DNA of 64,000 bases, from positions 62,001 through 126,000 of the forward strand of contig NZ_JAENGP010000013.1 in the NCBI RefSeq assembly GCF_016595155.1, written 5' to 3'. Of the stretch, positions 55,730-63,168 are shown one piece after another. A program made the position numbers and the translations under genes. The notes under the pieces were generated by a model. That model was not told the origin of the DNA, searched no databases, and saw only the letters and a list, made by a program, of their open reading frames with translations. The stretch comes from Advenella mandrilli. GTDB lineage: Bacteria > Pseudomonadota > Gammaproteobacteria > Burkholderiales > Burkholderiaceae_B. Numbering within the stretch: the first letter of the stretch is position 1; every line of letters starts with the position of its first letter.

Positions 55730-56038
55730 TTACTCCGCTTCGGGTATGTAAATCATGCGACCGTCATTCAGCCGGTAAGTGACACCGGCCCGGGCGCCTT
55801 CACCCTCGCCAATTTCATTGCTGGACTCATAGCGGGTCATTTCCTTGCCTTGCTTGATGGTCATTTTCATTTGATCGGTGCCGGGTGATTCGATCACAAT
55901 CACATCTTCTTTGGCATACGGGTTAAGCGGGTTCTGCACAATCACAATCATCAACACCCCAATAACAACCAGGAATACGTCAATCAGGTTAACAACCGAC
56001 AGCAGCGGATCATCATCTTCTTCGTTTAAAAACCTCAT
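55730..56038 (-). CDS. DUF2149-family membrane protein
   Basis: Small protein (102 aa) with one N-terminal membrane span (VVNLIDVFLVVIGVLMIVIV) and an ExbD-like periplasmic tail. The N-terminus DDDPLLSVVNLIDVFLV is family-typical. It overlaps the TolQ/ExbB-like gene by 4 bases, so the two form an ExbB/ExbD-like energising pair. It is the last gene of the TonB receptor/CobN-like operon. Function unknown beyond this context. Confidence 0.8.
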   Translation of the reverse strand: MRFLNEEDDDPLLSVVNLIDVFLVVIGVLMIVIVQNPLNPYAKEDVIVIESPGTDQMKMTIKQGKEMTRYESSNEIGEGEGARAGVTYRLNDGRMIYIPEAE

Positions 56039-56514
56039 ACCTGTGCCTCTTGTGCCTGTTCTACCTGACGCAGTTCCTCAAGCAGCCAGCGCCGCCGGAT
56101 GGTTAGCACCAGATAGCTCAGGCTGGAACCGATCAGGGCAATAATAACCGCAGAAAAGGCAACCACCATGTTTTCACCTACACCTTGCGTGTCCTGGCGG
56201 GTCAGGGCCAGCAGGGCCGGTCCCATGGGAATCATGGTGGCAATCAGCCCCAGCATGGGCGTATTGCGTGAGGTAATCCGCAGCCATTCCAGCCGCCGCA
56301 TAATCCATAATTCAAGATCATCGGGCTTGCCACCGTTTTTTTTGTAATGAGCCAGCAGAACGGATTGATACTTATTGCGTTTTTTTTGCCATGCTTCGGC
56401 AAGTAAGGCGCCCAACGCCATGAAAGAATAAACCAGTGCCAGCAGGATCAGGAACATGACCGGGATAAAGAATAAATGGGAAAGCTGATAGAGCCAGTGT
56501 TCAAAAGATGTCAT
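56035..56514 (-). CDS. MotA/TolQ/ExbB-family proton-channel-like protein
   Basis: Inner-membrane protein (159 aa) with three membrane segments: VMFLILLALVYSFMALGALL, RNTPMLGLIATMIPMGPALL (the TolQ-type second span) and GENMVVAFSAVIIALIGSSL. It is overlapped by the DUF2149 gene and follows the CobN-like gene after 65 bases. Such pairs use proton-motive force to drive a periplasmic or outer-membrane partner; here presumably the CobN-like protein or receptor of the same operon. Confidence 0.82.
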   Translation of the reverse strand: MTSFEHWLYQLSHLFFIPVMFLILLALVYSFMALGALLAEAWQKKRNKYQSVLLAHYKKNGGKPDDLELWIMRRLEWLRITSRNTPMLGLIATMIPMGPALLALTRQDTQGVGENMVVAFSAVIIALIGSSLSYLVLTIRRRWLLEELRQVEQAQEAQV

Positions 56515-56579
56515 TTCGGATAGTGATTAAAAAAGGTAATGCGGTTGGTAAATTGGTTTATATATAAAATAAATGGCCA

Positions 56580-59500
56580 TTAATCAGGTTGACGGTTAAT
56601 GGCAGCCGTTTTCTGGTTGCGCCGGTGTTGCAGTAACGCTCCTGCGAACAGGCAGGCAAAAATGAATGAAAGACCAATGGCAAAAATCATATCTTGCTCA
56701 TCGGGCGGGCTTTGCTCAATTTTCTTCATGACTTTGCCGCTAATGGTCTGGCTGCTGTTTGCGCTGTTTTCATTCAGTTCAATGTCAGGCTTGTTTTGCG
56801 CAGCCGGCTCTTGGGCAGCGGGTGTTGCGCCGGCTTGCGCTGCCAGTCCATAACCGCCCAGCTGGCTGTTGATGAATTCAGCTGTGATGGGGTTTTGGCT
56901 TAGCTCATATGTTTCATGCAATTGCTGCCAGCGCTGTTTCAGGGATTGTTGGGTTGTCGCATCGGCTTGCCAGTAATCTTTGCGAATGGCTTCGGCCATG
57001 CGCTCAATCAGCTGGGCCTGGGCATTGGGGTTGTGCTGTTCAAACCATTGGTTCATATTCATGTCCAGGCTGTCCTGTACATAAACATCGTGCATATGCT
57101 GCCATTGGTCATCACGGATACTTTGCGGGTCCATCACCTGCCAGCCCCACATATTATTGATGGTTTGTTCAATTTCAAGTGTGCCAGCATAGTTTTCCTG
57201 CTGCATATGGTTAATCCAGTGCCGGTTGGTATAACGGCTGCGTATTTCCTCGGCAATGAAAGAGGCGCTGCTTTGGGCACTGGCGGTTTTACCACGCTGG
57301 TCACTGACCAGCAGGGTAGGGCTTTGCCCGTTAAGGCTGCGAATGGCAACAGACAGGCCGCCCAGAAATTCAAAGGGGTGGTCGGTTGAAAGCATGCCGT
57401 GCAGATTGGATGAGCGGGAAAAGGCGGCAGCCTGGGTGTTTTCCAGCTGCAGGCTGAATACAGGCTGTTGACTGTTGGCTTTTTGCCCCCACAGGCGGTG
57501 ACTGAATATATAGCCCTGGGTATTCAGAAACTGTTCGGCCAGTTCTGTTTCATGTTCCCAGCTGCTGTTTTGCAAAACGCGATGCGTCAGGCCAGTGCCA
57601 TATTGCCCGGGCTCATTGCCAAAAACACGGCTGCTGGCATAGATCATGGCCTCTTCCTGGTTTATGCCCTGTTGCAGCAATTTCTGGTAAATGCTTTGGG
57701 TATTGTGGTAAATGGGGTTGTCGGGTTCGTCCAGTTGCGCCAGTTTTTCAATGGCTTCAGACAGTTTGCGGATGAAGCTGTCAAACTGGTCACGATAGGT
57801 ACCGGTTACCTGAATGACGGCATCAATGCGGGGACGTTTCAATTGCGCGGCCGGAATAATGTCAAAATGGCTGAGGGAGCCGTTGGTCAGCCATACCGGT
57901 TGCAGACCCAGTGCATGTACTACTTGGGCCTCCATGCCGCCCAAGGTGCGGATGGCATCGGAAGACCACAGGCTGAAGGCCATTTTGGTGGGCAAATCGC
58001 CGTTGTTTTGCTGGCGGTATAAGGCCAGCAACTTATCCAGTGCCGCTTCGGCGGCTTCCCATGCCGATTTTGACGGGATTTTGGAGGCATCAAAGGCGTA
58101 CATGTTTTTGCCGCTGGTGATTTCTGGGTCGCGTATGGAGTCACCACCGGTACCCGGGCTGGTAAAGCGCCCGTTTATGGCTTTAATCAAGGCGGCGGTT
58201 TCATTGCTTGCCTGCAAATTGGCGGCATAGCGTGTGGCCTGCGCCAGGATGGGGAGATATTGTTCCTGTTCTGCCTGTGACAGGGCCTGCCAGTGAGGTT
58301 GTTCTGTTTCAGGCTTAAACAAATGTTCGTGCAGTAATTGATAGGCGGGTGATTGCCTGATTTTTTCGTTATCCCGGGCCATGGTTTCGGCATGGTCAAG
58401 CTTGAGGCTGTCAAACCAGGGTTTGCCCAATTGCTGCAGGACGGTCAGGGTAAGGGTGTCCGCTTCCGGGTTCAGGCCAAAGGCATGCAGGCCCAGGGGA
58501 ACCGAGCGTGCCGCCAGCTGGTGCAGATGATGGTGCAGCACACTGAAAAATGCCGTGAAATCTTCACGGATGGCGGCTTCAGTCAGGTTAAGATCTTTGT
58601 TCAGATGCTGCTGAATGACGGCCGCCGTGATGGCTTGCATGGTTTTATCACGGATAGGGCCGTCTTCCAGCTGTTCATATTCGTGCATTAAATCATGCAG
58701 CTCTTTCAGTTCATCATGCAGGCCGGAAGGAGAAAATGCGGGGGTATGATGGCTGATAACCGTGGCCCGGCCCCGCCGTTTGGCCTGGATCGCTTCACCA
58801 ATATTATCCTGGATATACGGATAGAATACGGGCAGGTCATTCAGCACCAAGTGCGGGAAATCAAAGGCGGATAAACCGCGATCCTTGCCCGGCAGCCATT
58901 CCTGTGAACCATGTGTGCCAAAATGGATAAGCGCATCAGCCTGGTATTCATGCGATAAATACAGGTAAGTGGCCAGATACTGATGGGAGGGCACCAGATG
59001 CTTGTCGTGATAATCGTGGGCCGAGCCGCTGCCACGGCGGGGTTGCGGCAAAATAGCCAGATTACCGGTAAGCAGGCGTGGAATAATGAATACGGGTTCG
59101 CCATTTACCTGGTAAATATCGCTGGAGTCATAGGGGCTGCCAGTCTCCGCCCGTATTTTGTCTGCCGTGGCTTTGGGCTGGCTGTTCAGCCAATGATAGT
59201 ACAGGCCAACCGACAGGGTGTCGGCCATGCCCGCTTTCAGCAATTCAGGCCGCAAGGCAGGCTGGTGCTGTGCTTTGAGTAAACGCTGTAACTGTTCTAT
59301 CAGGGTTTGCTCATCTTCTATCGTCTCAAAGCGGTAGCCTGCCTGTTGCATGGCAGGAATCAGCGAGATCAGGCTTTTCGGGATATTCATGCCGGTCGCC
59401 GCAATGCTTTTGTCATTATCGGGATGGTTCCACACCATCAGGGCCACTTTTTTATCTTGATTGGGCAGGTGTTGCAGGGCAGCCAGTTTGCGCAGGCGCA

Positions 59501-60539
59501 TCAGCAACTGGTCTATCTGATCGTTCAGCGGCACAATGGTGTCGCTGCGTTTTTCACTGATGACAGTGGGTTCAATCAGACCCCAGGTTTCCGGCAGGGC
59601 AAGAAATACGGCGACCTGATTCAGGTTAATGCCGGAGGCTGCCTGCTCCCAGCCTTTGCCGGGTTCGTTTACACGATAGCTGAAGCTCTGGATAACGGGG
59701 ATGTTTAGACTTTCAAAAAGACGGGTATTGTCGGCTCCCTGTATATGGGTCATGTTTACCAGGGCGTGGATGGGCAGGCTTTTCAGAAACGCTTCTTTTT
59801 CTTCGCCGGACAGGTTTTCCATCCAGAAAACCAGAGGGCGGATTCCCATGCGTTCTGCCGACTGCACCATGTAATCAATCACTTCGGTTTGCTGGGCGCT
59901 GAACGTACCTTTGCTTGCCATGAAACCAATGCTGGTATTGCTGAAATGCGATTGCCTGTTTTCATGTTGTTCATAGTCTTGCAATGAGTTGGACAGGCGG
60001 GCATCTTGCGCATGATAAAAACCGGTTTTGCCGAAGATAACGGGGGCCGGTATGTGTGCGGTGGCTTCCTGGTGCAGGAAGGCATGCAGGTATCTGAACA
60101 TGGCAGACCAGTTTTGCGCCGTGCCATTATCATAATATTGCCGGATCGTATCCACTGTTTTGCCGGGTATGCCTGCATGAGTGCGGGCCGGGCCGCTGGC
60201 TTGCAGCCAGGGGGTTATGCCGGCTTCAAGATAGGGCAGTGCTTTCTTCTGGATGATTTGCCAGTCTGGCTGGCGGGGGCTGTCAATCAGAACCAGACTG
60301 GCCTGGCCGATGGCCTGCTCCAGTTGAGGGGCAGGAGTGGTATCTGCATAAATGTATGACAGTTCGAGTTTGGCCTGACGGGCAAATTCATTCATTCTGG
60401 TGTATTGGGAAGCATGATTGAATTGCGTTGTTAATATCAGGATCTGGCTGTTTTGCTGTGCGTTTGCCAGCGTGGCAAAAAACAGGAAGATACCTGCCCA
60501 GGCGGACAGGAGCAGGTGTTTCAGTGCTGTTGTTTTCAT
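56580..60539 (-). CDS. Membrane-anchored periplasmic CobN/HmuS-like chelatase homologue
   Basis: Protein of 1319 aa with the CobN/Mg-chelatase large-subunit domain along most of its length (segments such as ALIHFGTHGSQEWLPGKDRG, MAFSLWSSDAIRTLGGMEAQ and FEFLGGLSVAIRSLNG). Unlike cytoplasmic CobN it starts with a signal peptide (LLLSAWAGIFLFFATLANAQ) and ends with one membrane span (about 1284-1303) and a basic tail, so the catalytic part should be in the periplasm. No CobS/CobT ATPase is present. It overlaps the TonB receptor by one base (TGATG). The arrangement resembles CobN-like HmuS of Bacteroidota heme-uptake loci, so it may remove metal from a tetrapyrrole. Direction and substrate are inference. 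Confidence 0.8.
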   Translation of the reverse strand: MKTTALKHLLLSAWAGIFLFFATLANAQQNSQILILTTQFNHASQYTRMNEFARQAKLELSYIYADTTPAPQLEQAIGQASLVLIDSPRQPDWQIIQKKALPYLEAGITPWLQASGPARTHAGIPGKTVDTIRQYYDNGTAQNWSAMFRYLHAFLHQEATAHIPAPVIFGKTGFYHAQDARLSNSLQDYEQHENRQSHFSNTSIGFMASKGTFSAQQTEVIDYMVQSAERMGIRPLVFWMENLSGEEKEAFLKSLPIHALVNMTHIQGADNTRLFESLNIPVIQSFSYRVNEPGKGWEQAASGINLNQVAVFLALPETWGLIEPTVISEKRSDTIVPLNDQIDQLLMRLRKLAALQHLPNQDKKVALMVWNHPDNDKSIAATGMNIPKSLISLIPAMQQAGYRFETIEDEQTLIEQLQRLLKAQHQPALRPELLKAGMADTLSVGLYYHWLNSQPKATADKIRAETGSPYDSSDIYQVNGEPVFIIPRLLTGNLAILPQPRRGSGSAHDYHDKHLVPSHQYLATYLYLSHEYQADALIHFGTHGSQEWLPGKDRGLSAFDFPHLVLNDLPVFYPYIQDNIGEAIQAKRRGRATVISHHTPAFSPSGLHDELKELHDLMHEYEQLEDGPIRDKTMQAITAAVIQQHLNKDLNLTEAAIREDFTAFFSVLHHHLHQLAARSVPLGLHAFGLNPEADTLTLTVLQQLGKPWFDSLKLDHAETMARDNEKIRQSPAYQLLHEHLFKPETEQPHWQALSQAEQEQYLPILAQATRYAANLQASNETAALIKAINGRFTSPGTGGDSIRDPEITSGKNMYAFDASKIPSKSAWEAAEAALDKLLALYRQQNNGDLPTKMAFSLWSSDAIRTLGGMEAQVVHALGLQPVWLTNGSLSHFDIIPAAQLKRPRIDAVIQVTGTYRDQFDSFIRKLSEAIEKLAQLDEPDNPIYHNTQSIYQKLLQQGINQEEAMIYASSRVFGNEPGQYGTGLTHRVLQNSSWEHETELAEQFLNTQGYIFSHRLWGQKANSQQPVFSLQLENTQAAAFSRSSNLHGMLSTDHPFEFLGGLSVAIRSLNGQSPTLLVSDQRGKTASAQSSASFIAEEIRSRYTNRHWINHMQQENYAGTLEIEQTINNMWGWQVMDPQSIRDDQWQHMHDVYVQDSLDMNMNQWFEQHNPNAQAQLIERMAEAIRKDYWQADATTQQSLKQRWQQLHETYELSQNPITAEFINSQLGGYGLAAQAGATPAAQEPAAQNKPDIELNENSANSSQTISGKVMKKIEQSPPDEQDMIFAIGLSFIFACLFAGALLQHRRNQKTAAINRQPD

Positions 60540-62530
60540 CAGAATGACAGTGTTAAACCAAGGTTAAGGCGACGGCCAGGTTCGGCATAGGTATTGACGG
60601 TATCTTCATCAATGAATTTTTCATTGCTCAGGTTTTCAATACCTGCGGAAACCCGCAAGTGTTTATTAAGCTGATAGCCTGCCTGCAGGGAATAAACCCG
60701 GGATGCTTTCTGTTTGTTGGTGTTGTTGCCGGCATCCATGTATTGGGTACCGATGTATTGCATATGGGCGCCTAGTGTAAGCTGCTCTGTAGGGGTCCAG
60801 CTCAGGCCTGCCGAGCCAGAGTGACGGGGAGTCAGGGTCAGGTGCCTGTCTTCATGATCACGGGCATTCAGGTAGTTGTAGCTTATTTTTAATTTTAAAC
60901 GGTCTGTTAATGCATAGCTGGCACCCAGTTCGGTCCCATTGTAGCGGGCACGTTCAATATTATGGTAGGTGCCCAGCTCCAGGCCGCGCTGGCCGCAATA
61001 GTTGGTGCAGGTATAGGCAATCTTGTTTTTGACTTTATTACGGTAGATGGTGCCTTCAAGGAAAAGGCGGTCGGTTTCGTAAATGGCTGAAAACTCTATA
61101 TTGGTGCTGGTTTCCGGGGCCAGGTCAGGGTTGCCGTGTACGGTAAAAAAACCGCCCCTGCCGCTACCGGTATAATCGGACGACAGCTGTTTCAGGGTAG
61201 GTGCCTTGAAGCCCCTGCCAATACCGCCTTTAAGGGTAAATTGCTCACTCAGGTCGTATACCGTGTACAAACGCGGACTATGATGGGAACCAAATTTTTC
61301 ATGGCGATCAAGACGGTCGCCAATAATGACAGACCAGTCGGGTGTAATGGCGATTTCATCCTGAAGAAACAGGGCGGTGTGGATTAACGATGTTTTGCCT
61401 GAACCGGTGAAACCGTCATCTTCAAGTTTTTCTTTGCGCCATTCTGTACCCGCAGTCAGCAGGTGACGTTGTGCCAGCGGAATGTTAACCCGTAAATCGG
61501 CAATGGTTTCCGTCAGTTTCTGGATGTCTTCATTATTTGTGTCATTGCGGGTGTTGGTACGCTCAAGATCGGAGTTATAAAGATTGGCCTGCATTTTTCC
61601 CCACGACCCTTCGCCCTGATAGCCAAGGGAGGTTTGCCTGCGCCGGATATCGTCGTAGCTTGCGTATTCGTGTTGTGAGCTTACCGGGGGCTTGCCGGGT
61701 TGGCGAATGGTTTTGGTTGCAATAGCGTGACGTATATTGTCTTCATGTCCGTCTAAATGGTCAAACGTAAGTTCATGGCCAGGCGTGATGACCCATCTTA
61801 AGCCAAGACCGGCCTGATGCGAGCGCAGGCCTTCAAGGTATGAGGGGAACAAGCCATTGGCTGTAGAGGGCATGAGTACTTCACCCTGGTATTTTTTCTC
61901 ACCGTACATATTAAGGAACAGTTTGTCCTGAATAAGTGCGCCACCGGTAGACGCGCTGAATATATAACTGTTACCGGACGGATCACTGATGCCGTTGCTG
62001 AAATAAGAGGAGATTTCACCGCTCCAGGCGTTTTCAGGTTTTTGGGTAATGATGTTAATGGTACCGCCCAGGGCTTCTGAACCATACAGGGAAGACATGG
62101 GGCCACGAATGACTTCGATGCGTTCGACCTGGCTGGCGGGAATCCAGTTCAGGTCCAGGTTGGAGTGGGCAATCGCATTAATGGAAGGGGTGATACGGCG
62201 GCCATTGACCAGTACGAGAGAGTATTTGCTGTCCATCCCCCTGAAACTGACACCTTTACGGTTCATGCCAATGCCGGTAATGGTAACGCCAGGAACGTCA
62301 CGCATGGCATCGGCAAGATTGCTGACCGGGCGGTCTTTTAAATCATCTGCCGTAATAACGGAAATGGAAGCAGGAGCATGACGCAGGCTGTGTTCGGTAC
62401 TGCTGGCGCTGATAACAATCGTATCAAGCGTGACAGTTTGCGTGTTGGTGGAAGTGGCGGTTTGTGCCAGTGCGGTTTGTTGGAACAGGACAAGGGCGCA
62501 CAGGGGTGCGAATGGTCGGATGGGAAACAT
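60539..62530 (-). CDS. TonB-dependent outer-membrane receptor
   Basis: Outer-membrane receptor (663 aa): signal peptide (ending FQQTALAQ), a TonB-box-like TLDTIVISAS segment, plug domain (SVITADDLKDRPVSNLADAM...), and a 22-strand beta-barrel ending in LNLGLTLSF with the terminal Phe. It has GFKAP (about 440) and GNPDLAPETS with a histidine just before it (about H465), an arrangement similar to the FRAP/NPNL region of heme receptors, though CirA/FepA-like siderophore receptors share the outline. It is the first gene of the operon with the CobN-like protein. Confidence 0.85.
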   Translation of the reverse strand: MFPIRPFAPLCALVLFQQTALAQTATSTNTQTVTLDTIVISASSTEHSLRHAPASISVITADDLKDRPVSNLADAMRDVPGVTITGIGMNRKGVSFRGMDSKYSLVLVNGRRITPSINAIAHSNLDLNWIPASQVERIEVIRGPMSSLYGSEALGGTINIITQKPENAWSGEISSYFSNGISDPSGNSYIFSASTGGALIQDKLFLNMYGEKKYQGEVLMPSTANGLFPSYLEGLRSHQAGLGLRWVITPGHELTFDHLDGHEDNIRHAIATKTIRQPGKPPVSSQHEYASYDDIRRRQTSLGYQGEGSWGKMQANLYNSDLERTNTRNDTNNEDIQKLTETIADLRVNIPLAQRHLLTAGTEWRKEKLEDDGFTGSGKTSLIHTALFLQDEIAITPDWSVIIGDRLDRHEKFGSHHSPRLYTVYDLSEQFTLKGGIGRGFKAPTLKQLSSDYTGSGRGGFFTVHGNPDLAPETSTNIEFSAIYETDRLFLEGTIYRNKVKNKIAYTCTNYCGQRGLELGTYHNIERARYNGTELGASYALTDRLKLKISYNYLNARDHEDRHLTLTPRHSGSAGLSWTPTEQLTLGAHMQYIGTQYMDAGNNTNKQKASRVYSLQAGYQLNKHLRVSAGIENLSNEKFIDEDTVNTYAEPGRRLNLGLTLSF

Positions 62531-62784
62531 GATAAGGAACGAGAATGACTGCTATTTCTGAAAAGTTATTGAAATGTTATAACGTATCATTATTTGTTGC
62601 AACTTTTTATTTTATGAATCAAAAAATGAATGGTTTTTTCTTTTGCCCCCAAAAACCCGATCAGGAAACAAAAAGTAATCTGTTCGTTTGAAATATCTCT
62701 TTGTTTTCATATGTTTAGGAGTATTCTGTAATTGCTGGTCGGTAGCAATGCAGATCAGGGTTTATTTTTTCAGGGAGGTGCAAA
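62531..62784. promoter_or_regulatory. Divergent promoter region with a weak Fur-box-like element
   Basis: 254 AT-rich bases with no gene. On the minus strand 62577-62595 reads AAATAATGATACGTTATAA, containing ATAATGATA, which is a good half of the Fur consensus; the other half is degenerate. It lies about 50 bases upstream of the receptor start. Low confidence. Confidence 0.3.
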
Positions 62785-63168
62785 ATGAGGAAAACATTAC
62801 TTATTCTGGCTTTCGCCAGTCTGGGGTGTGGCTTCATGAGTGATAGTGCCCGTGCAGCCGGTCCACCGGTAAAAGCAATGAATGAGGTATTGGTTAATGT
62901 GGATGGCATGACTTTATATACTTACGATAAAGACAGGGGCATGGACGGTAAAAGCGTATGTAATGACCGCTGTGCCGAGAATTGGCCACCGCTTTTGGCT
63001 GCCCCCGATAGCAATGCGGAAGGAGATTACAGCATAATCATGCGCGATGATGCAAGCAGCCAATGGGCTTACAAGGGACAGCCATTGTATCTGTATAAAA
63101 GAGACATGAAACAGGGGGACATGGCAGGAGATGATGTCCAGAATGTTTGGCATGTGATTAAACAGTAG
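62785..63168 (+). CDS. Secreted COG4315-type protein
   Basis: 127-residue protein with signal peptide (ending DSARAAG). It has the COG4315 secreted-repeat pattern: TLYTYDKDRGMDGKSVCNDR then CAENWPPLL, and later YKGQPLYLYKRDM. These small proteins have no established role. GGGAGG precedes the ATG. It is divergent from the TonB receptor, so may or may not share its regulation. Confidence 0.8.
   Translation: MRKTLLILAFASLGCGFMSDSARAAGPPVKAMNEVLVNVDGMTLYTYDKDRGMDGKSVCNDRCAENWPPLLAAPDSNAEGDYSIIMRDDASSQWAYKGQPLYLYKRDMKQGDMAGDDVQNVWHVIKQ

What the first reader, a model, noticed from the sequence alone, without database searches (positions are those of the whole stretch)
55730..62530. TonB receptor + periplasmic CobN-like chelatase + ExbB/DUF2149 pair: a possible metal-tetrapyrrole de-metallation system in a betaproteobacterium
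The four genes are tightly overlapped on one strand. The CobN homologue has a signal peptide and a C-terminal anchor, so its catalytic domain should be periplasmic. No CobS/CobT or cobalamin synthesis gene is near. From established knowledge, CobN is normally cytoplasmic and needs CobS/CobT. Bacteroidota heme loci (hmu type) carry a CobN-like HmuS next to a TonB receptor and small membrane proteins and are linked to iron extraction from heme. Inference: the ExbB-like/DUF2149 pair may energise the chelatase in place of an AAA ATPase.
Basis: partly seen in the sequence, partly recalled or inferred. Interest (0 to 1): 0.82.

Follow-up and report, generated by a model that had tools for sequence, protein, structure and literature searches.

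The report
Zinc-controlled porphyrin metal-stripping operon
Four adjacent genes in an Advenella-like bacterium have the genome's second-best match to its own zinc-repressor (zur-znu) binding site in front of them and encode a relative of the heme-iron-stripping enzyme HmuS, which is predicted to work in the periplasm and would likely pull zinc, rather than iron, out of ring-shaped metal carriers when zinc runs short.

Summary
In detail: TonB receptor, CobN-like protein, ExbB-like protein and DUF2149 protein lie on one strand. The CobN-like protein is not a vitamin B12 cobaltochelatase. The genome lacks CobS, CobT and CbiC/CobH, the protein has a predicted signal peptide and C-terminal anchor, and it falls outside the CobN/ChlH branch. 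Its best solved sequence relative is HmuS, the heme dechelatase of Bacteroidota, but it is outside that clade too and lacks HmuS's methionine-rich insertion, Met79, HmuY and HmuT. Zur-type boxes recur in front of related operons (7 of 13 of this active-site class, 0 of 23 others). A sister class tends to have Fur-like boxes and a third has cobalamin riboswitches. The published P. aeruginosa PA1922-PA1925 operon, Zur-bound and zinc-starvation-induced, has a matching layout and no settled function. Best reading: a proton-motive-force-coupled HmuS-type dechelatase module, here likely used to take zinc from a Zn-tetrapyrrole. Promoter site and family are shown by sequence; Zur binding, metal, substrate and motor coupling are inferred. 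A second copy in the same genome has no Zur box.

The parts
62574..62590 (.). Zur-type box ATGTTATAACGTATCAT, 43 bp from the receptor's start codon; also fits the published P. aeruginosa Zur consensus GWWAYWNNNTWHCR
   Evidence: 2 mismatches to the zur-znuCBA box of the same genome; only site other than that box with 2 or fewer mismatches in 3.28 Mb; PWM trained on boxes at zur loci alone scores 19.0, 0 of 400 dinucleotide shuffles reach it; consensus hit
62589..62618 (-). sigma-70-like -35 (TTCATA) and -10 (AATAAT); the box touches the -10
   Evidence: weak: 2 promoter-like sites found in the stretch, 1.3 expected in shuffles
60539..62530 (-). TonB-dependent outer-membrane receptor, 663 aa, Cir-like
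   Evidence: PF00593 and PF07715; best solved relative colicin I receptor Cir, 1.4e-95, heme receptor PhuR 2.7e-26; of the 25 NCBIfam models shown none reaches its cut-off
56580..60539 (-). HmuS/CobN-like chelatase, 1319 aa, predicted membrane-anchored and periplasmic
   Evidence: PF02514; best PDB sequence match HmuS 9d26, 4e-128; tree; model pLDDT 87.4
60459..60539 (-). predicted N-terminal signal peptide of the CobN-like protein (residues 1-27)
   Evidence: 17-mer hydropathy 2.14; cleavage place judged by eye, no predictor run
56631..56690 (-). predicted C-terminal transmembrane anchor of the CobN-like protein (residues 1284-1303), followed by HRRNQK
   Evidence: 17-mer hydropathy 2.39; C-end test passed by 69 of 75 module-side and 0 of 17 CobN/ChlH-side proteins
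58911..58913 (-). His543, counterpart of HmuS catalytic His538 (HFGTHG motif)
   Evidence: H538A inactivates HmuS (PMC12583661, section read)
57378..57380 (-). His1054, counterpart of HmuS His1209, in LSTDHPFEFLGG (Glu1057 = Glu1212)
57399..57401 (-). His1047, at the place of HmuS cleft residue Trp1202; also His in several true CobN rows
   Evidence: within the DHxxE proteins Asn, Gln, Tyr and others occur too
59745..59747 (-). His265, counterpart of HmuS neck heme ligand His254; the partner Met79 has no Met counterpart
56035..56514 (-). ExbB/TolQ-like inner-membrane protein, 159 aa (HmuU-like)
   Evidence: PF01618; weak profile match to own ExbB/TolQ over 76 columns
55730..56038 (-). DUF2149 protein, 102 aa (HmuV-like): one TM helix with Asp20, then a small predicted beta domain
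   Evidence: PF09919; Asp20 invariant in 17 of 17; aligns on the Asp of own ExbD; low-confidence model

Best explanation
This is a four-gene cluster with a Zur-type (zinc-repressor) box in its promoter that encodes a relative of the heme dechelatase HmuS, which is predicted to be periplasmic and membrane-anchored and would likely free zinc from a Zn-tetrapyrrole. Proposed steps: (1) zinc shortage lifts Zur repression (box shown, binding inferred). (2) The Cir-like TonB receptor imports a zinc chelate, most likely a Zn-porphyrin such as Zn-coproporphyrin (inferred). (3) The CobN-like protein binds it. The neck His265 is kept and Met79 is not, which would suit a five-coordinate Zn-porphyrin (inferred). 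(4) In the cleft, His543 and His1054/Glu1057, the counterparts of the HmuS catalytic pair, would protonate the ring and release Zn(II); no reduction step would be needed, unlike heme iron (inferred). (5) The ExbB-like/DUF2149 pair, an ExbB-ExbD-like stator with the transmembrane Asp, would use the proton-motive force to open or reset the chelatase in place of the ATP-driven partners of CobN and ChlH (inferred). (6) ZnuABC, encoded beside zur in the same genome, would import the freed zinc (inferred).
For: Zur-type box: second-best match in the genome to the zur-znu box. PWM trained only on boxes at zur loci: window 19.0, Alcanivorax and Alloalcanivorax 20.2 (three loci), Oligella 18.0, Pelistega 21.5, G267 14.9, G515 14.8. 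Score of 13 or more with shuffle p <= 0.02: 7 of 13 operons of the DHxxE class, 0 of 23 others, Fisher p = 2e-4; one per lineage 6 of 9 against 0 of 22. P. aeruginosa PA1922-PA1925 is Zur-bound in vitro and up 45-147-fold in a znuA mutant, role unsettled (passages). Not B12 synthesis: no CobT, CobS_N, CbiC/CobH. HmuS-like sequence, fold and catalytic residues. Anchors: both ends hydrophobic in 62 of 75 module-side, 0 of 17 CobN/ChlH-side proteins. Pair with chelatase: 34 of 34 entered loci on the chelatase strand, 29 within 200 bp, against 2 of 34 with a same-strand receptor within 200 bp of the pair; 8 of 34 have no same-strand receptor within 1 kb. 19 of 19 DUF2149 hits near a CobN-like gene. 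Own tonB-exbBD and tolQR exist elsewhere. DUF2149 also occurs in Methanosarcina acetivorans and in methanogens linked to TolQ (PMC9425974 passage), which have no outer membrane (recalled). Bacterial Zn-coproporphyrin is on record (PMC6104308, search listing).
Against: No experiment fixes metal or substrate; Zur control, itself predicted here, would show only that the operon serves zinc starvation. The second copy in the same genome and its two Advenella orthologs share the DHxxE signature but have no Zur box, nor do G107 and Azospirillum. G492 (L147) has a strong Zur box but has lost the catalytic His motif, so in at least one Zur-boxed relative this chemistry is unlikely. The active-site classes are not clean clades: P0135 with DDxxQ sits among the DHxxE rows. 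His1047 is not strictly conserved. The receptor resembles Cir, not a porphyrin receptor. By structural Z the model is closest to M. tuberculosis CobN (51.6 against 41.0 for HmuS), and the CobN model NF004644 is passed above its cut-off. The published view has the HmuU/HmuV pair energising the receptor (PMC10100974). PA1923 itself was not seen.
Confidence: 0.5

Rival explanations
1. The CobN-like protein handles a zinc chelate that is not a tetrapyrrole (a metallophore taken up by the Cir-like receptor), as a binding or release station rather than a dechelatase of rings.
For: Cir-like receptor. G492 (L147) keeps the Zur box and all four genes but has lost the catalytic His motif. Published authors assign PA1922-25 to import of free zinc.
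Against: The solved relatives are named for tetrapyrrole substrates, and the catalytic His/His/Glu set is kept here.
Confidence: 0.22
2. It is a betaproteobacterial HmuS: an iron-from-heme dechelatase that merely happens to carry a Zur box.
For: HmuS is the best PDB sequence hit; catalytic residues and neck His are shared; same order of receptor, chelatase, ExbB-like and DUF2149 as in hmu operons, which add HmuY and HmuT.
Against: Zur-type and no Fur-type site: Fur 12 of 19 matches, shuffle p 0.37; Fur-like boxes lie with the sister DDxxQ class (8 of 16). No insertion, Met79, HmuY or HmuT; separate clade.
Confidence: 0.14
3. It serves cobalt or cobalamin: salvage or remodelling of corrinoids, or cobalt supply as a zinc substitute.
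For: Related modules carry cobalamin riboswitches. Co rises in the P. aeruginosa znuA mutant (PMC4542158 passage) and cobalt eases zinc starvation (PMC13083405 title and passage).
Against: No riboswitch in the window; riboswitch-linked members have another active-site signature; no corrin synthesis genes found.
Confidence: 0.08
4. The ExbB/DUF2149 pair only powers the TonB receptor, and the chelatase works unaided.
For: This is the published view for HmuU/HmuV (PMC10100974); purified HmuS turned heme over (PMC12583661, section read).
Against: The pair lies within 200 bp of the chelatase gene in 29 of 34 loci and of a same-strand receptor in 2 of 34; a TonB-ExbB-ExbD set is present elsewhere; the pair occurs in methanogens.
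Confidence: 0.35

Closest known systems
P. aeruginosa PA1922-PA1925 (Zur-regulated operon of unsettled function)
   Same: Published as TonB receptor, CobN-like, ExbD-like, hypothetical, with a Zur site upstream; zinc starvation response (passages)
   Different: PA1923 sequence not available here; the window protein sits on a long separate branch and its genome has a second copy without a Zur box. The published work calls it cobaltochelatase or free-zinc import; none of the passages read ties it to HmuS.
HmuS / hmuYRSTUV heme system of Bacteroidota (PDB 9d26, 9p4s)
   Same: Receptor, large predicted periplasmic CobN-like chelatase, ExbB-like and DUF2149 in the same order; catalytic His538/His1209/Glu1212 counterparts; neck His254
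   Different: No HmuY, HmuT, methionine-rich insertion or Met79; Trp1202 is His; separate clade; Zur-type instead of iron-linked control
CobN cobaltochelatase / ChlH magnesium chelatase
   Different: No C-terminal hydrophobic stretch in 17 of 17 compared, though three of them pass the N-end threshold; need CobS/CobT or ChlI/ChlD (recalled); other tree branch; Sinorhizobium CobN has DDxxQ instead of DHxxE
Hmu-like or BtuS-type modules under a cobalamin riboswitch
   Same: Same chelatase plus ExbB/DUF2149 module; B. fragilis case published (PMC10100974, section read)
   Different: DDxxQ or NDxxD active site; riboswitch control

Membership tests
HmuS heme dechelatase | Class I chelatase fold with signal/TM ends | tested here: met
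   model pLDDT 87.4, Foldseek 9d26 2.9e-71; ends hydrophobic (prediction)
HmuS heme dechelatase | Catalytic His538 in HFG(T/A)HG and His1209/Glu1212 in LSLDHxxEFMGG | tested here: met
   HFGTHG and LSTDHPFEFLGG; the residues are kept, the second motif differs at two places
HmuS heme dechelatase | Site-1 heme ligands Met79 and His254 | tested here: not met
   His265 kept; no Met in the aligned head stretch, an alignment part with gaps; Aureibacter HmuS also lacks this Met
HmuS heme dechelatase | Methionine-rich insertion in domain IV | tested here: not met
   about 50 residues between the two aligned parts against about 209 in 9d26; stretch of 90 against 146-335 in four HmuS rows, but some CobN rows reach 150, so length alone is not specific
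HmuS heme dechelatase | Placed in the HmuS clade | tested here: not met
   HmuS clade of 4 rows, support 100, without the window
HmuS heme dechelatase | Six-gene operon with HmuY and HmuT | tested here: not met
   no further gene between the four, and the flanking ORFs read as other functions (by eye; no HmuY/HmuT profile was run)
HmuS heme dechelatase | NADH-dependent iron release from heme | not testable with these tools
   bench assay needed
PA1922-PA1925 type operon | Receptor, CobN-like, ExbB/D-like gene order | tested here: met
   against the published description
PA1922-PA1925 type operon | Zur site in the promoter | tested here: met
   (sequence only)
PA1922-PA1925 type operon | Orthology with PA1923 | not tested
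   no fetched protein is named P. aeruginosa; Pseudomonas sp. P0068 and Stutzerimonas P0164 are DHxxE members
PA1922-PA1925 type operon | Induced by zinc starvation | not testable with these tools
   expression data needed
CobN cobaltochelatase | CobS and CobT partners | tested here: not met
CobN cobaltochelatase | Corrin synthesis pathway | tested here: not met
   no CbiC/CobH
CobN cobaltochelatase | Cytoplasmic, no anchors | tested here: not met
   (prediction)
CobN cobaltochelatase | Curated CobN model above cut-off | tested here: met
   NF004644 1370 bits against 1248; the five other CobN models listed are far below theirs
ExbD/TolR | Pfam ExbD match and TM Asp | tested here: inconclusive
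   no PF02472 listed; Asp aligned but hhalign probability 37.6

The most novel reading that the evidence does not exclude
A family of chelatase-plus-proton-motor modules strips different metals from tetrapyrroles in the periplasm. Regulator and active-site code change together: Zur with DHxxE for zinc, Fur with Y/DDxxQ for iron, the cobalamin riboswitch for B12. The window is a member of the zinc branch, which would be an enzyme that mines zinc from Zn-porphyrins.
Probability: 0.38. Interest if true: 0.85.

Novelty: new variant of a known kind. Interest (0 to 1): 0.62.

Why it matters
Two literatures have not met in the papers seen. One describes a Zur-controlled CobN-like operon of unsettled role in P. 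aeruginosa zinc starvation; the other a CobN-like heme dechelatase in gut Bacteroidota. The link gives the first operon a testable chemistry, zinc release from a metallo-ring. It also questions the published view that HmuV (DUF2149) is diagnostic of heme transport (PMC10100974), since DUF2149 occurs here behind Zur-type boxes and cobalamin riboswitches. If the pair drives the chelatase, it would be a further use of ExbB/ExbD-like stators.

Tried and rejected
B12 cobaltochelatase: rejected. Riboswitch in the window: none. Fur box in the window promoter: none better than shuffles. One fixed zinc residue code: His1047 varies (Asn, Gln, Tyr, Arg, Trp among DHxxE proteins), so only DHxxE is used. 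DUF2149 structure: model too weak (pLDDT 69, pTM 0.37), no fold search run on it. ExbB Glu of the proton path: not conserved in the ExbB-like set. The cytochrome b search was uninformative. Zur-like hits of 13 or more elsewhere in fetched loci, not counted as module promoters: L133, L143, L145 (two), L149 (two), L153.

Limits of the regulator test: cut-offs (Zur 13, Fur 13 of 19) were chosen after seeing the first lists, and the Fur consensus is recalled. The third class was grouped by best similarity to L078's protein, which had been picked because it has a riboswitch (without it 5 of 6). Left out of the 36: L019 (partial gene, Zur 21.5), L147 (degenerate, Zur 19.0), L065 (same genome as L018), truncated L044, L068 and L074, L138, the three CobN loci without the pair, and the Bacteroidota loci. 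Loci are related, so p-values are rough. L149 scored 13.0 as printed and was not counted.

Placement count: my first table wrongly left out receptors in L077, L132, L133 and L151; one search is the recount used here. [quoted passage not shown] The hydropathy count leaves out four partial or odd rows.
Full report
What is there. Junctions are a 1-nt overlap, a 65-nt gap and a 4-nt overlap. The genome (3.28 Mb, 38 contigs, window = C3:62001-126000) holds a second complete copy of the same four genes on contig C6, whose chelatase is 41% identical. Its Zur protein is 95-96% identical to those in the genomes of the Advenella alkanexedens and A. faeciporci loci, so I call it Advenella-like; that is an inference.

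Relation to HmuS. The best solved sequence match is HmuS, 4e-128. HmuS papers (PMC12583661, sections read, the Discussion in its first part; PMC13227078, abstract, two sections, passages) give the tests. Kept: His538 (His543 here), His1209 and Glu1212 (His1054, Glu1057), neck His254 (His265). Not kept: Met79, Trp1202 (His1047), Gln1198 (Ser1043), the methionine-rich insertion, HmuY, HmuT. It works like an HmuS-type module but is not filed as HmuS.

The zinc link. The same contig carries zur, a COG0523 GTPase gene and, divergently, znuC-znuB-znuA (names by my reading of the translations). Their shared promoter holds ATGTTATATCATATCAT. Searching the genome with that 17-mer at up to 3 mismatches gave 7 sites: itself, the window promoter with 2 mismatches, and five with 3; the backwards control gave 1. 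Of 12 zur loci scanned, own included, 9 carry a similar box (two of them are one genome under two handles; in three the box lies about 1.3 kb from zur and the gene behind it was not checked), one has only a poor match and two have none. A matrix trained on four of these boxes, not on any module promoter, scores the window promoter 19.0. P. aeruginosa PA1922-PA1925, described as receptor, CobN-like, ExbD-like and hypothetical, is Zur-bound and zinc-starvation-induced with no settled role (passages only). One review says Zur control of PA1922 seems unique to P. aeruginosa among Pseudomonas; the boxes in Alcanivorax, Oligella, Pelistega and this genome suggest that such control reaches beyond that genus.

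Three wirings of one module. In 300 genomes of the order, own included, 62 had a relative at E <= 1e-50. Of the 13 other genomes whose best hit had 590 bits or more, 12 show ExbB and DUF2149 near the chelatase; the 13th runs off its contig. The three low-scoring loci examined by placement alone (L076, L079, L080) lack the pair; two further low-scoring ones (L077, L078) have it. In a 398-genome phylum sample 17 genomes have DUF2149, 19 hits, all with a CobN-like gene near. Sorted by active site, 36 operons gave: Zur 7 of 13 DHxxE, 0 of 16 DDxxQ-type, 0 of 7 cobalamin-type; Fur-like 0 of 13, 8 of 16, 0 of 7. Cobalamin riboswitches upstream on the same strand: 0 of 12 scanned DHxxE (L149 was not scanned), 1 of 16, 6 of 7. 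These lie directly before a receptor gene (L078, L140, L151, L152, and L150 at the called start of the receptor), just before the chelatase gene (L154, 33.5 bits, barely over the cut-off) or 2.8 kb ahead of it (L146). Fisher p 2e-4, 4e-4 and 2e-5 (the last computed with 0 of 13), with relatedness and after-the-fact cut-offs as caveats. Azospirillum (L132) has a riboswitch downstream of its module, before an ABC transporter. L147 breaks the pattern: Zur 19.0 but no catalytic His motif. P0135, with DDxxQ, sits among DHxxE rows in the tree.

The motor pair. DUF2149 has an invariant Asp in its TM helix (17 of 17), and the profile comparison aligns VNLIDVFLV with ExbD's VPLIDVMLV (probability only 37.6). 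The ExbB-like protein aligns weakly with ExbB/TolQ, and the ExbB Glu is not kept. Own tonB-exbB-exbD and tolQ-tolR-tolA exist (names by my reading). The pair is on the chelatase strand in 34 of 34 entered loci and within 200 bp of it in 29, but within 200 bp of a same-strand receptor in 2; four loci have no same-strand receptor in the fetched stretch and eight none within 1 kb. DUF2149 is found in Methanosarcina acetivorans, as is PF02514 (whether side by side was not seen), and a survey links methanogen DUF2149 to TolQ (passage). I therefore favour coupling to the chelatase; the published model for HmuU/HmuV is coupling to the receptor.

Substrate. Zn-tetrapyrroles are the simplest reading because the solved relatives are named for tetrapyrrole substrates. 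Zn-coproporphyrin III made by a cheese-rind bacterium is on record (title and abstract start only; a second paper's passage calls coproporphyrin III a possible zincophore or chalkophore). Five-coordination of Zn-porphyrins is recalled chemistry. Nothing here excludes another zinc chelate.

Print status. Among the rows listed by the searches (several lists were cut) no title, abstract start or passage read joins Zur or PA1923 to HmuS or to zinc dechelation; the library lacks most subscription journals. An NCBI name already calls an Azospirillum member 'CobN-like chelatase BtuS for metalloporphyrine salvage'.

Noticed in passing
L003:4327-11006 (G000 contig C6): Second complete receptor/CobN-like/ExbB/DUF2149 copy in the same genome, without a Zur box and with Met instead of the neck His; orthologs in Advenella alkanexedens and A. 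faeciporci also lack the box. What controls it is unknown.
   Followed up: partly
L147:7774-14869 (G492): Same module with a strong Zur box but a CobN-like protein that has lost the HFGTHG and DHxxE motifs: a possible non-catalytic zinc variant.
   Followed up: partly
L066, L067, L069, L071, L141, L142, L143, L145: Modules with Y/DDxx(Q/E) active site and Fur-like promoter boxes: possible heme-iron dechelatases of Pseudomonadota with an Asp where HmuS has His1209.
   Followed up: partly
L132:10765-10982 (Azospirillum brasilense plasmid): Cobalamin riboswitch directly downstream of a DHxxE module, ahead of an ABC transporter.
   Followed up: no
CobN-like C-termini: A short stretch like VxGQxM/L lies just before the C-terminal anchor in many members (seen by eye); possibly a docking site for the motor pair.
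   Followed up: no
window 62785-63168: Divergent gene for a small secreted protein, starting about 195 bp beyond the Zur box; it shares the intergenic stretch but is not clearly part of the operon.
   Followed up: no
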